From Aquimarina sp. ERC-38 (lineage in GTDB: Bacteria; Bacteroidota; Bacteroidia; Flavobacteriales; Flavobacteriaceae): a stretch of DNA of 64,000 nucleotides. The notes beneath the pieces were generated by a model that did not search any database, had not been told where the DNA came from, and worked only from the letters and a program-made list of their open reading frames with translations. Positions within the stretch are counted from its first letter, which is position 1, and every line of letters begins with the position of its first letter. This document shows positions 47,604 to 51,742 of the stretch, piece by piece. The stretch is from assembly GCF_026222555.1 (NCBI RefSeq), contig NZ_CP098511.1, positions 1,097,501-1,161,500 of the forward strand, in the 5' to 3' direction. The translations under genes were made by a program, and so were the position numbers.

Positions 47604-48572
47604 ATGAATAACCGTTTTGCACGCCGGCAGCCTTCTTCTATAACTACCATAGCATTTTACAACCTCGAAAATTTATTTGATACCATTGACGATCCGCATA
47701 CCCTAGACGAAAATTTTTTACCCAACAGCGATCGCGAATGGAACCTAAAAAAATATGAAAGTAAGCTATTTAAGTTAGCGACAGTTATTCCCAAAATTGG
47801 TGTTGCATCTGCCGGAACATCTCCAGTACTAGTCGGAGTGGCTGAAGTCGAGAATAAAAAAGTACTAAAAGACCTGGTCGCTGTAAAATCTCTAAAGAAA
47901 GAAAAATATAAATTTATACACTACAACTCCCCAGATGAAAGAGGCATTGACGTTGCGCTACTTTACCAACCCAAACATTTTGAAGTTTTATCCTCAGAAC
48001 CTATCTCTGTTTACGTAGAAGATGAACCTGAAGTAAGGGATTACACACGTGATATTTTATATGTAACTGGTAATTTACACAATGAGAAGGTACATATACT
48101 AGTCAATCACTGGCCTTCTCGCCGGGACGGAAGTGCTTCTACCCAGCATAAAAGAATAGCCGCGGCTATCAAGAATCGAGAGGTTATTACCAACATCCGA
48201 GAAACCGAACTGGAAGCTAAGATTATCATTATGGGCGACTTTAACGATGATCCTAAAGATCAAAGTGTACGTGAACACCTGGTACAGGATGATTTTTACA
48301 ATCCTATGGAAAAAATACATTCCCGATATCGCGGATCTCTAAGTTATCGGAAAAACTGGAATCATTTTGATCAAATTATTATCAGTAATAATTTCCACCG
48401 TTTTGAAAAGAATAAGCTTTCTTTTGCTAAAGCAGATGTGTTTGATGCGGATTTCTTAAAGGTGTATGAAGGAAGATACAAAGGCGTTCCTTTCAGAACT
48501 TACGTAGGTGATGACTGGCAAGGCGGATATAGTGATCATTTTCCTGTGTATGTACAGTTAAAGTTGAATTAG
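47604..48572 (+). CDS. Endonuclease/exonuclease/phosphatase, no signal peptide
   Basis: The 322-residue enzyme is an EEP-superfamily metal-dependent phosphodiesterase. Motifs in order: IAFYNLENLFDTIDDP (Asn ligand), VAEVENKKVL (metal Glu), GIDVALLYQP, VNHWPSRRDGS (catalytic His), IIMGDFNDDPKD (Asp/Asn pair), and GGYSDHFPVYVQL (terminal Asp-His). I start it at the ATG 47604; the longer frame begins at a TTG and adds 12 residues without making a signal peptide, so the protein seems cytoplasmic. A close paralogue with a signal peptide lies at 54719. Substrate may be nucleic acid or another phosphoester. Confidence 0.88.
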   Translation: MNNRFARRQPSSITTIAFYNLENLFDTIDDPHTLDENFLPNSDREWNLKKYESKLFKLATVIPKIGVASAGTSPVLVGVAEVENKKVLKDLVAVKSLKKEKYKFIHYNSPDERGIDVALLYQPKHFEVLSSEPISVYVEDEPEVRDYTRDILYVTGNLHNEKVHILVNHWPSRRDGSASTQHKRIAAAIKNREVITNIRETELEAKIIIMGDFNDDPKDQSVREHLVQDDFYNPMEKIHSRYRGSLSYRKNWNHFDQIIISNNFHRFEKNKLSFAKADVFDADFLKVYEGRYKGVPFRTYVGDDWQGGYSDHFPVYVQLKLN

Positions 48573-48882
48573 GTTTATTCATATTAGTGTACAGTAAAGA
48601 TTCAAGATCGCTATCGCTTCTAGAACCAAGAATCAAGACTAATTATTATAATATTAAAAACCAATACTTTAAGATTATTTACGTTAAAAACAAGTTACAT
48701 TTAAAAAAGTGACTTAGAACGAGTTTTATTTACACTACCATAAGCAGCTCCTAAATACTTTAAAGTTTGGAATTATCTTATTTTACCATACTTTTCAAAC
48801 TTTTATTTATCTTAACCGAACACTAATGGTTTATTTATTTTTTAGTAAAATTGAGGCTTTCTTCTAGAGTGAATTACCTTAA
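48573..48882. other. Intergenic region ending at the IS insertion
   Basis: No independent gene is visible. The right end (48842-48882) is the severed 3' end of the toxin gene plus the 3-bp target duplication. The left part shows only AT-rich spacer with short CAAGA-type words around 48599-48640. Confidence 0.6.
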
Positions 48883-49766
48883 GAGCATGTTTAAATAAGA
48901 TTCTTATAAATTACCTTATTCTATTGAGAATGATTTGACAATTCTGCCATAATACCCAAGATTCTTGACTTTCCTTCGTTTTTTCATAGTCTTTATCGAG
49001 TCTTCTGAAGAAGTTGAAGATACCGAAAGTCCTTTCAGTTACCCATCTCCACTTCAAGGGAACAAAACCTTTTGTGGATGGGGGAGTTGATGATATCTTT
49101 ACCTCAAGTCCAATTACATTTTCTTCAGCCCACCTCTTAAATATTGTTTTGTAGGCATGATCAGCTACTATTTTTTCCATCCTATCCAGGTACCCTAATA
49201 AAGGTTCCACAACTTTGTTGGCTACTACCCCATCAGCTTCATTGGCAGCCCCTACAACAACCCCCCAAACTAAACCTAACGTATCAGTAATTACGTGACG
49301 TTTACGGCCATTTACCTTTTTATTACCGTCAACCCCTTTTGACATACTTGTAAAAGGACCGGACTTTATGGATTGACTATCAATGGATAACAAGCTAGGT
49401 GTTGGTTCTTTCCCTTGTCGGTTCCGCTCCATTTTGTTAAGCTCAATATTTAATCTCTCTTGTGTCCCATCTTTTTGCCATTTGCGAAAGTAATAGTATA
49501 CACTTTGCCATTTTGGAAAACTATCCGGGAGGTTACGCCACTGAGTACCTGTACGGAGTTGCCATAAAATAGCGTCTACAATATCCCGTAGTTTATAATG
49601 CCCCCGGGTTTTCTTAGGTAAAAATAATTCCATATATTCCCATTGCTGGGTAGTTAATCTGTTATATTTAGATTGCATAAACATTGTTGTTTTAGTCAAC
49701 TACAAAGTTTAGACTATCCAGCTTTTTAACAAAAAAATTATCCGAAAATTTAGTTTAAACATGCTC
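48883..49766 (-). mobile_element. Complete IS5-family insertion sequence, 884 bp
   Basis: Perfect 13-base terminal inverted repeats GAGCATGTTTAAA (48883-48895) and TTTAAACATGCTC (49754-49766) continue imperfectly to about 22 bases. TAA occurs directly outside both ends (48880-48882 and 49767-49769) and is the 3-bp target duplication. One transposase gene with intact DDE residues fills the element. Ends, size and target duplication fit the IS427-like part of the IS5 family. The perfect duplication suggests a recent event. Confidence 0.92.
48911..49699 (-). CDS. IS5-family transposase
   Basis: The 262-residue transposase has an N-terminal DUF4096-like region (LTTQQWEYMELFLPKKTRG, RDIVDAILWQLRTGTQWRNLP) and a DDE domain. 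The catalytic Asp is in SIDSQSIKSG (about residue 108), the second Asp in VADHAYKTIF (about 178) and the Glu in VTERTFGIFNFFRRLDKDYE (about 219). All three are intact and the frame is unbroken, so the enzyme could be active. The start may also be at one of the Met codons five or seven residues downstream. Confidence 0.93.
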   Translation of the reverse strand: MTKTTMFMQSKYNRLTTQQWEYMELFLPKKTRGHYKLRDIVDAILWQLRTGTQWRNLPDSFPKWQSVYYYFRKWQKDGTQERLNIELNKMERNRQGKEPTPSLLSIDSQSIKSGPFTSMSKGVDGNKKVNGRKRHVITDTLGLVWGVVVGAANEADGVVANKVVEPLLGYLDRMEKIVADHAYKTIFKRWAEENVIGLEVKISSTPPSTKGFVPLKWRWVTERTFGIFNFFRRLDKDYEKTKESQESWVLWQNCQIILNRIR

Positions 49767-50015
49767 TAATAACATATACCGCTTCTCTTTCAATTTTATA
49801 AGATATTCGGTAGCTATGTTTCTCATAGAAACGGATTGTACCATCATTATTAGATTTAAGTGGATCTAACTTAAAAATTTCTGAGTTGTTTTCTAAAATA
49901 AAAGAAGATTCGAATACTTCTGTCATCACTCTTATAGTGGTTTTAACAGACTTCGACCTTTCTAGTAACTCTAGATATAATTCGCTTAAATCTTTATCTG
50001 CCTGATGTGTCCAGA

Positions 50016-50261
50016 TTACCCTTTTCCCCATTGACTTATGCGTTCTTTCATTTCTTCACTCGTATAAAATTCCCCTTTATCAATTTGAGATATTGATACA
50101 TCCAGTTCCTGATTATACTGTTCAATGCTGATCCTATCTTCATCAGTTGTTTTGGTAGTTCTTCTATAGGTAAGCAAGTTTTTAAATGCTTCTATAAGCA
50201 ATGGGTCTTTTACATCGTTCAATTCATTTTGAATCCATTTAATATCTGCCTGAACATCCAT
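50016..50261 (-). CDS. Antitoxin of a RelE/ParE-type pair
   Basis: The 81-residue acidic protein precedes and overlaps the toxin gene by 16 bases, a classic antitoxin-toxin layout. Helical KWIQNELNDVKDPLLIEAFKNLL is followed by EQYNQELDVSISQIDKGEFYTSEEMKERISQW, a C-terminal pattern common in antitoxins of RelE/ParE toxins (QYNxEL...GEFYTxEE). With the toxin gene broken by the IS it may now be an orphan. Its own promoter is visible upstream. Confidence 0.82.
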   Translation of the reverse strand: MDVQADIKWIQNELNDVKDPLLIEAFKNLLTYRRTTKTTDEDRISIEQYNQELDVSISQIDKGEFYTSEEMKERISQWGKG

Positions 50262-50283
50262 AGTTTTTTATTTTAAGCTCTCT

Positions 50284-50314
50284 CAAAGATACTTAATTTC
50301 TTAAAAAGGTAAAA
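50284..50314 (-). promoter_or_regulatory. Promoter of the toxin-antitoxin operon
   Basis: On the minus strand TTTT (50314-50311), 19 bases, then TATCTTTG (50291-50284) nearly match the consensus. The antitoxin ATG lies 22 bases downstream. Confidence 0.6.
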
Positions 50315-50338
50315 GAGCGCAGTAAGCGGAATTCCTGA

Positions 50339-51742
50339 TCAATCTACTAAAACCTTTAGGTTATCTATATGATAACGGGTGGTGGCTTCGGGGTCAGACC
50401 CCTTATAGACAAATGCAATTTGTATTTTACCAGTCAAACAGGAAATTGAAATGGGACCTACCGATTCAAATGTTCCAAAACCTTCCGGGTTTCCATCGGG
50501 AATGACGGCATCCAACAAGGTCCATTGTGTAGTGGTAATGTCACCGGTAAATTGAGTTGTAATATAAGGTGTCAGAATATTTCCGTTATCAAAACTAGCT
50601 TGTATATCCAATATAATATATGCGTTTGTAGTGCCTTCCAAATTAATTTCAGGAGTTACCGCCCAAACTTCAAAATCCGTTTCTTTTGAGTTAAAACCTG
50701 ATATTTCTAAATAAGAATTACCGCTAAACGAACCGGTATCATATGCTAATTTGCCATCTTTAATATTTCTATTTAACCAACCTTCTTTTAGCAAGCTGTC
50801 TATCGATTTTTTAGTGAAATTTTCTTCGTATAAAACATTTTTTGCTACGCTACTATCGGGACAAATCAATACATCCGGGTCACATCGGTTTTCATCGGAT
50901 AAATGTAGGTCGGTAGGGGTATTAATTTTTATATTATAAACTTCCCCAAAAAAGTTTCGGGTCAAAATTCCGATAACAGAACCTTTCTTTGTTGGAAGGG
51001 TCAAAGCCTTAAAATCTGAAAATGTACTGGAACTAACTATGGTTTTTTTATCAGACTCGCAATGTTCCAGGATGCGTTCTCCGTTAAATTCATCTCTGGC
51101 TTCTGCAGCATAGGTAAAGATATGGTCTGACCTTACTTGTTTTCGATTAAATTGTACATTTTCTAATTGAATAAAAGTACATAACGGATTCTTATCAAAA
51201 TCCTCTATTTGAATAGTTTTAGGTTCAATAAGCCCAACTTTTGAGGAGCGTATGATAATTTCTTCTTTTAAAAACTGTGAGATTTTGTTAATTCGGTTAT
51301 TTTCTAAAATTCCCAAAGTGGGTATTCCATTTTCTATACCTAAGGAAAGGTTATTTAATTTGATGTAAATTTTCCTTCCTTTTTCATACGAAATATATAG
51401 AGGACTATCATCAATCAGAATACGCAACCCAGCGTTGGGATTGGCAGGTGTACTCTGAACATATAATTCTTCAAAAAAGTTACCGGCAGCATCATCTGAT
51501 ATTACGTAAGCTTGTAAATACCAAGAAGAATCCGAAAAGGTAAGCGCACTATTTCCTAAATTCACTTCTTGTTCTAACGAACTGAGCAGTGATTTAATTT
51601 CTACAATTTCTCCTTCAATTACAGGTTCTTCAATGACCAAAGGTGGAATTTCAAATTCGGTTTGATCCGTACAAGAAAGTAATCTGCTTATTAGTAGCAG
51701 TAATATAAAAATTCGTGTAATATTAAGTAATTTCTTAATCAT
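50339..51742 (-). CDS. DUF5689 domain lipoprotein
   Basis: The product is a 467-residue lipoprotein with signal IFILLLLISRLLSC (Cys24 in the chosen start). I start it at the ATG 51742, since the upstream extension to 51817 runs into the TonB receptor gene and adds no signal. DUF5689 (about residues 45-245) has WYLQAYVISDDAAGNFFEELYVQS and KIYIKLNNLSLGIENGIPTLG. The C-terminal beta-sandwich (about 300-467) with WAVTPEINLEGTTNAYIILDIQASF looks like a choice-of-anchor or cleaved-adhesin domain. It starts 10 bases after the TonB receptor gene and is its likely surface partner. Confidence 0.85.
   Translation of the reverse strand: MIKKLLNITRIFILLLLISRLLSCTDQTEFEIPPLVIEEPVIEGEIVEIKSLLSSLEQEVNLGNSALTFSDSSWYLQAYVISDDAAGNFFEELYVQSTPANPNAGLRILIDDSPLYISYEKGRKIYIKLNNLSLGIENGIPTLGILENNRINKISQFLKEEIIIRSSKVGLIEPKTIQIEDFDKNPLCTFIQLENVQFNRKQVRSDHIFTYAAEARDEFNGERILEHCESDKKTIVSSSTFSDFKALTLPTKKGSVIGILTRNFFGEVYNIKINTPTDLHLSDENRCDPDVLICPDSSVAKNVLYEENFTKKSIDSLLKEGWLNRNIKDGKLAYDTGSFSGNSYLEISGFNSKETDFEVWAVTPEINLEGTTNAYIILDIQASFDNGNILTPYITTQFTGDITTTQWTLLDAVIPDGNPEGFGTFESVGPISISCLTGKIQIAFVYKGSDPEATTRYHIDNLKVLVD

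What the first reader, a model, noticed from the sequence alone, without database searches (positions are those of the whole stretch)
48842..50031. IS insertion truncates a RelE/ParE toxin; frame restored by excision in silico
Removing the 884-bp IS and one TAA target copy joins the two flanks into a frame of 100 codons, ending VIKVIHSRRKPQFY and a stop. Before removal the frame ends after five codons formed almost wholly by IS sequence. The antitoxin and its promoter are still intact. This looks like a natural knock-out of a toxin with the antitoxin left behind, and it gives a clear before/after of the locus.
Basis: partly seen in the sequence, partly recalled or inferred. Interest (0 to 1): 0.75.

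Follow-up and report, generated by a model that had tools for sequence, protein, structure and literature searches.

The report
Jumping gene disarms a bacterial toxin
A mobile DNA element sits inside the toxin gene of a two-gene toxin-antitoxin pair and cuts off the toxin's last residues, which likely disarms it, while the antitoxin gene is unbroken; a copy of the same element also splits the antitoxin gene of a second pair in this genome, whose toxin carries a change that would likely weaken it.

Summary
An 884-bp IS5-family element (48883-49766, TAA target duplication) lies in the 3' end of a ParE/RelE-type toxin gene. The toxin now ends RACLN, encoded almost wholly by the IS. The stranded piece beyond the IS (KVIHSRRKPQFY, stop) resembles the C-terminal tail of intact 100-residue relatives. 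The antitoxin and its predicted promoter are unbroken. Nine identical IS copies in the genome suggest recent spread. The predicted structure of the truncated toxin keeps the ParE fold and lacks only the tail; published mutants of other ParE toxins place toxicity there, so loss of toxicity is likely but untested. No empty allele of the same species was available. Toxin decay with the antitoxin kept is a known kind of event. Beyond the finding: another copy of this IS splits a YefM antitoxin; its YoeB toxin ends in Cys where 118 of 119 listed relatives have Tyr (one unmapped), and the IS end offers an in-frame ATG to the rest of YefM. In three toxin families searched, 5 of 8 toxins in this genome are broken or altered; in 4 of the 5 the antitoxin frame is open. 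That pattern is the more interesting part.

The parts
48883..49766 (-). IS5-family insertion sequence, 884 bp; one of nine identical copies in the genome
48911..49699 (-). transposase gene of the IS, 262 aa (PF13340, PF01609; NF033580 IS5 family)
48880..48882 (.). left TAA target-site duplication
49767..49769 (.). right TAA target-site duplication
48883..48895 (+). left terminal inverted repeat, 13 matching bases (an imperfect match runs on: 21 nt, 86%)
49754..49766 (-). right terminal inverted repeat
49750..50031 (-). truncated ParE/RelE-type toxin frame, 93 aa, last five codons (RACLN) almost wholly from the IS
48842..48879 (-). stranded 3' piece of the toxin gene outside IS and duplication, reading VIHSRRKPQFY and a stop
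   Evidence: compared with relatives
50016..50261 (-). antitoxin gene, 81 aa, open, overlapping the toxin start
50284..50291 (-). TATCTTTG, predicted promoter -7 box (TANNTTTG type, recalled consensus) 30 nt before the antitoxin ATG
   Evidence: an exact TANNTTTG 27-32 nt upstream in 17 of 25 relative loci
48583..48827 (.). copy of a dispersed ~220-250 bp repeat with inverted ends (ATTAGTGT...ACACTAAT), MITE-like, 14 nt beyond the toxin stop

Best explanation
An IS5-family element, likely active not long ago, sits in the 3' end of a ParE/RelE-type toxin gene and gives the toxin an IS-encoded end in place of its C-terminal tail, which likely abolishes toxicity while the antitoxin gene stays unbroken. 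Shown: the insertion, its target duplication, the nine identical copies, the truncated frame, the stranded tail piece, the open antitoxin frame and the family match. Predicted: the truncated toxin still folds with the helices and strands of the ParE fold and loses only the tail after the last strand. Inferred: loss of the tail removes toxic activity, as it did in a studied ParE; the antitoxin is still made from its own promoter; the antitoxin may still bind the folded remnant.
For: IS anatomy and copies. Toxin is PF05016 over its cut-off (24.5 against 23 bits) and folds like ParE toxins (Foldseek E about 1e-5, TM about 0.8 to 5ceg, 5cw7/5czf, 9w3a). Intact relatives end mostly IIRVRYARKEPLxY, with R, V and P of that end invariant in the 15 aligned; the stranded piece carries like residues. 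Models of truncated and intact proteins have the same elements up to strand 84-92. Literature passages: removing 10 C-terminal residues of a mycobacterial ParE2 made it non-toxic in E. coli and M. smegmatis (PMC4906023); His91 in the C-terminal loop of a Shewanella ParE is essential for toxicity (PMC8706911). Antitoxin frame open, promoter motif in place.
Against: No toxicity or expression data. The truncated protein is predicted well folded (pLDDT 93), so residual activity is possible. Target and mechanism of this toxin subfamily are unknown, and by sequence no solved structure is a close relative (best E 0.25 for the protein; 0.011 for the family profile). The antitoxin matches no curated family over its cut-off. 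8 of 25 relative loci lack an exact promoter box. No same-species allele without the IS was seen.
Confidence: 0.86

Rival explanations
1. Disarmed co-repressor: the truncated toxin is not mere debris; it would still fold, bind the antitoxin through its helical hairpin and serve as co-repressor of the operon, so the module would live on as a harmless autoregulated pair.
For: The fold elements are kept in the model; antitoxin contacts in a Shewanella ParE lie mainly on helices 1 and 2 (PMC8706911 passages), which are retained here; both frames stay overlapped and under the same predicted promoter.
Against: No binding or repression test; if the insertion is recent there has been little time for selection to keep the truncated frame. 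In the Shewanella system the toxin acted as de-repressor at a 1:1 ratio, and His91 of the C-terminal loop also touches the antitoxin, so tail loss could weaken binding.
Confidence: 0.3
2. The truncated toxin is still toxic and the antitoxin is kept because it is needed; the IS end merely replaced a dispensable tail.
For: The fold is predicted intact.
Against: The tail is conserved in the family; tail loss or a tail mutation removes toxicity in two studied ParE toxins.
Confidence: 0.1
3. Assembly artefact: the IS was placed at this site by mis-assembly of nine identical copies.
For: Nine exact copies exist, and reads were not available.
Against: A 3-bp direct duplication flanks this copy and each of the other eight, with different neighbours; the genome is one contig.
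Confidence: 0.03

Closest known systems
ParE/RelE superfamily type II toxins (PF05016; solved relatives by fold 5ceg, 5cw7/5czf, 9w3a, 7ycs)
   Same: Profile over cut-off, ParE fold by Foldseek, operon with a short overlapping upstream antitoxin.
   Different: C-terminal tail cut off by an IS; antitoxin belongs to no curated family over its cut-off.
Natural decay of chromosomal toxin genes with antitoxin kept (Pseudomonas TA loci, PMC7280312; ccdO157 in E. coli as cited there)
   Same: Toxin frame broken, antitoxin kept; the paper gives 52%, 27% and 23% of loci without an intact toxin frame for xre-res, higBA and brnTA (passages).
   Different: Here the agent is an identifiable IS with its duplication, and the same element hit the antitoxin side of another pair.
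IS elements at hok toxin genes of E. coli (recalled; one search listed two papers, neither on this subject, neither read)
   Same: IS-linked inactivation of a chromosomal toxin.
   Different: Type I system; from memory only.
YefM-YoeB (PF02604, PF06769)
   Same: Second pair hit by the same IS (L008).
   Different: Antitoxin split near codon 17, toxin end altered.

Membership tests
ParE/RelE-type toxin (PF05016) | profile score over the gathering cut-off | tested here: met
   24.5 against 23 bits for the truncated protein; 34.9 for intact relative P0002
ParE/RelE-type toxin (PF05016) | ParE fold | tested here: met
   predicted models and Foldseek
ParE/RelE-type toxin (PF05016) | C-terminal tail after the last strand | tested here: not met
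   ACLN and a stop in its place; a longer tail in 23 of 23 open relatives
ParE/RelE-type toxin (PF05016) | toxicity neutralised by the cognate antitoxin | not testable with these tools
   needs an expression assay
RelE/StbE mRNA interferase (TIGR02385) | score over the curated cut-off | tested here: not met
   18.7 against 27.9 bits, truncated protein; intact relatives were not scanned with this library
RelB/ParD antitoxin (NF050811) | score over the curated cut-off | tested here: not met
   14.6 against 60 bits
IS5 family | transposase model over cut-off | tested here: met
   NF033580 159.8 against 110 bits
IS5 family | terminal inverted repeats and short target duplication | tested here: met
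   13 matching terminal bases; 9 of 9 copies flanked by TTA or TAA on both sides
YefM-YoeB pair (L008) | YoeB profile and YefM profile | tested here: met
   PF06769 120.4 bits; PF02604 41.4 bits for the part right of the IS
YefM-YoeB pair (L008) | activity-required C-terminal Tyr of YoeB | tested here: not met
   Cys in its place; Tyr in 118 of 119 listed relatives, one unmapped; role from PMC3814384 passages

The most novel reading that the evidence does not exclude
This genome is stripping the weapons from its RelE-superfamily addiction modules while keeping their shields, and one fresh IS5 element does it from both sides. In the window it removes only the killing tail, leaving a folded toxin that still binds its antitoxin as a harmless co-repressor. 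In a second module it cuts off the antitoxin's DNA-binding start, its own terminal ATG keeping the neutralising half in frame, next to a toxin that has already lost its activity-required end.
Probability: 0.22. Interest if true: 0.55.

Novelty: new member of a known kind. Interest (0 to 1): 0.36.

Why it matters
Why chromosomes keep toxin-antitoxin pairs is disputed. A break that removes only the toxin's tail, made by an element whose copies are still identical, lets one ask directly whether the antitoxin, or the truncated complex, is still useful. The second hit in the same genome tests the addiction rule from the other side: an antitoxin break should be tolerated only if its toxin is already harmless or the remaining half still neutralises, and both conditions look possible there.

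Tried and rejected
Same-species empty allele: not found; each species is held once, and a plasmid search with 2.6 kb of the locus gave no match. A transposase search of viral contigs gave no relative. Rfam gave one microRNA hit far under its gathering score in 48000-51000, rejected.

Preference of the IS for toxin-antitoxin genes: 2 of 9 copies lie inside such genes and a third about 310 bp upstream of a pair with a PIN_3 protein. With uniform sites and 14, 30 or 60 modules of 550 bp, at least one hit among the other eight has probability 0.014, 0.029 or 0.058. The census covers six families only, survivors of transposition are biased to dispensable DNA, and this window was chosen because of a hit, so I make no claim of targeting.

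Papers: only passages of PMC3814384, PMC8706911, PMC4906023, PMC2701414, PMC7280312 and PMC4803016 were seen; all others only as search listings. I make no claim that the case is absent from print.

Full report
What is there. The window holds, on the minus strand, an antitoxin gene (50261-50016) followed with a 16-nt overlap by a toxin frame (50031-49750). The toxin matches PF05016 ParE_toxin just over its cut-off (24.5 against 23 bits), and RelE/StbE below its cut-off (18.7 against 27.9). The antitoxin matches no curated family over cut-off. The toxin frame runs into an 884-bp element, 48883-49766, whose 262-aa transposase scores 159.8 bits against a cut-off of 110 for an IS5-family model. 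Its ends match over 13 bases and it is flanked by TAA on both sides. The frame ends VIRACLN and a stop: the last five codons are IS sequence but for one base.

The other side. Read as it stands, 48883-48842 on the minus strand gives LKVIHSRRKPQFY and a stop. The closer intact relatives are 100 residues long and end mostly ...IIRVRYARKEPLxY. In the alignment the window protein is 54-63% identical to 12 of 15 relatives and 33-43% to the other three, P0004-P0006 (it holds five proteins and 10 of the 25 relative loci). The two pieces stand in family order.

Age and activity of the IS. Nine copies exist in this genome, identical over the 886 bases compared, each flanked by the same trinucleotide on both sides, TTA or its complement TAA, in 9 of 9. 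Of 52 genomes of the genus searched (own included), one other, G009, has matches, at 70-79% identity. I infer that the element spread recently.

Relatives of the pair. The toxin search hit 8 of 52 genomes of the genus, own included, so the pair is sporadic; the antitoxin search hit 13 of 56 genomes, own included, several only over half the protein. Fifteen loci came from genomes with record titles; the named isolates among them (Arenibacter, Galbibacter, Tamlana, Marixanthomonas, Subsaximicrobium, Pricia) are Flavobacteriaceae as I recall, so the host is inferred to be of that family. In 25 relative loci (some near-duplicates: L009/L010, L011/L012/L013, L034/L040 in one genome) the toxin frame is open in 23 and broken by stops in 2, L022 and L033; in both of these the antitoxin frame is open. 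Counted as open, but to be told: L020 has no ATG at the usual toxin start, and the antitoxin frames of L020, L038, L039 and L042 end a few residues before the window's. The gene overlap equals the window's in 20 of 25, and an exact TANNTTTG (recalled Bacteroidota promoter box) lies 27-32 nt before the antitoxin start in 17 of 25; the window has TATCTTTG at 30 nt.

What the cut removes. AlphaFold models of the truncated protein (pLDDT 93.0) and of intact relative P0002 (90.2) have the same strands and helices through residue 92; the intact one adds a short turn and the tail. Both find ParE toxins first in the PDB, with RelE, YoeB and YafQ lower; by sequence alone the PDB holds no close relative. 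In print, removing 10 C-terminal residues made a mycobacterial ParE2 non-toxic (PMC4906023 passages), and His91 of the C-terminal loop is essential for a Shewanella ParE (PMC8706911 passages). So loss of toxicity is likely; that is an inference from relatives, and this subfamily's target is unknown.

The second hit. Copy L008 (G000:C1:1534223-1535108) lies inside a YefM-type antitoxin: left of the IS the frame reads MEIVNYTDFRTNLKYWL, right of it LDKVVDD... to the end. The IS end carries ATG CTC, which with the target TTA is in frame with the right part, giving a possible 69-residue protein that matches PF02604 from profile position 16 on. In E. coli the C-terminal part of YefM binds YoeB and the N-terminal part is thought to bind DNA (PMC4803016 passages). 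The YoeB next to it (PF06769, 120.4 bits) is open but ends YHC. At the position of that Cys, 118 of 119 listed relatives have Tyr and one could not be mapped (these are the 119 best listed of 8000 scored); most listed relatives have 86 residues, this one 84. YoeB matches were found in 17 of 52 genomes of the genus, own included; in the loci read from them (L058-L075) the Tyr is present. In E. coli YoeB, Y84A abolishes and Y84F lowers activity (PMC3814384 passages, citing earlier work). In P. putida the yefM antitoxin could not be deleted (PMC7280312 passages). So this antitoxin break is probably tolerated because the toxin was already weak, or because the remnant still neutralises; the order of events is unknown, and a sequencing error in the last codons cannot be excluded.

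Census in this genome. ParE: five hits: three open with an antitoxin-like frame upstream (L047, L048, L050), one with an in-frame TAG and an open antitoxin-like frame (L049), one the window. YoeB: two: L008, and L056, in pieces with a copy of a dispersed repeat inside and an open YefM frame upstream. HigB: one, a fragment with stops, behind a transposase-like fragment and before a 114-aa frame that looks by eye like an HTH antitoxin (L098). So 5 of 8 toxins of these three families are broken or altered; the antitoxin frame is open in 4 of those 5 and split in one (L008). In the genus one more YoeB locus, L074/L077 in G072, has stops in the toxin and only the C-terminal part of YefM in frame. 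In what I read there was no clearly broken antitoxin beside a toxin of the usual sequence, in line with the addiction rule, with the short antitoxin ends told above as the nearest thing to an exception. The census covers few families (PF05016, PF06769, PF05015, with PF01850, PF13470 and PF02604 as side searches), other RelE-superfamily models were not searched, the antitoxins of L047-L050 were judged by position only, and none of this proves selection.

What is known. Degenerate toxins beside kept antitoxins are described for Pseudomonas (52% of loci for one system) and E. coli (PMC7280312 passages), and the authors of a comparative study mention many solo toxins and antitoxins in their reply to a reviewer (PMC2701414 passages). 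The window's case is therefore a new member of a known kind, with an unusually clear agent. The two-sided action of one IS in one genome is the part worth a specialist's look.

Verdict. Observation confirmed; interpretation supported with two limits: disarming is inferred, and the uninterrupted allele of the same species was not seen.

Noticed in passing
L008 (G000:C1:1532723-1536608), IS at 1502-2385, YoeB 2592-2846: Same IS splits a YefM antitoxin near codon 17; the IS end offers an in-frame ATG to the rest; the YoeB toxin beside it ends in Cys where 118 of 119 listed relatives have Tyr, one unmapped.
   Followed up: yes
window 48583-48827; L079-L092 and others: Dispersed ~220-250 bp repeat with inverted ends (ATTAGTGTCCGG...CCGGACACTAAT), MITE-like: 44 matches in the genome including this one, the others 69-89% identical, some of them split pieces; 40 of 218 first-look candidates were scored, so the count is a lower bound. 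One copy ends 14 nt from the toxin stop. No parent transposase was sought.
   Followed up: partly
L056 (own genome, about 898118-898550): Second YoeB gene in pieces with a copy of that repeat inside; YefM frame upstream is open.
   Followed up: partly
L049 (own genome 4196041-4196307): ParE-type toxin frame with an in-frame TAG, antitoxin-like frame upstream open.
   Followed up: partly
L098 (own genome, 1889711-1889887): HigB fragment behind a transposase-like fragment; a 114-aa frame after it looks by eye like an HTH antitoxin.
   Followed up: partly
L043 (own genome 511017-511902): IS copy about 310 bp upstream of a small pair whose second protein is PIN_3.
   Followed up: partly
L003, L004, L005: Other IS copies split a glycosyltransferase-like gene (L003; the IS-end ATG is again in frame with the second half), sit at the 3' end of a SIR2-family gene (L004) and lie in a gene that looks RHS-like by eye (L005).
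   Followed up: partly
L033 (G061) and L022 (Subsaximicrobium): Orthologous toxins broken by in-frame stops while the antitoxin frame is open.
   Followed up: partly
L029 (G023), L030 (G014): The N-terminal half of the antitoxin recurs (67-72% identity over 36-39 residues) in genomes without a hit to this toxin; in L030 a frame nearby scores weakly as another ParE-like protein.
   Followed up: no
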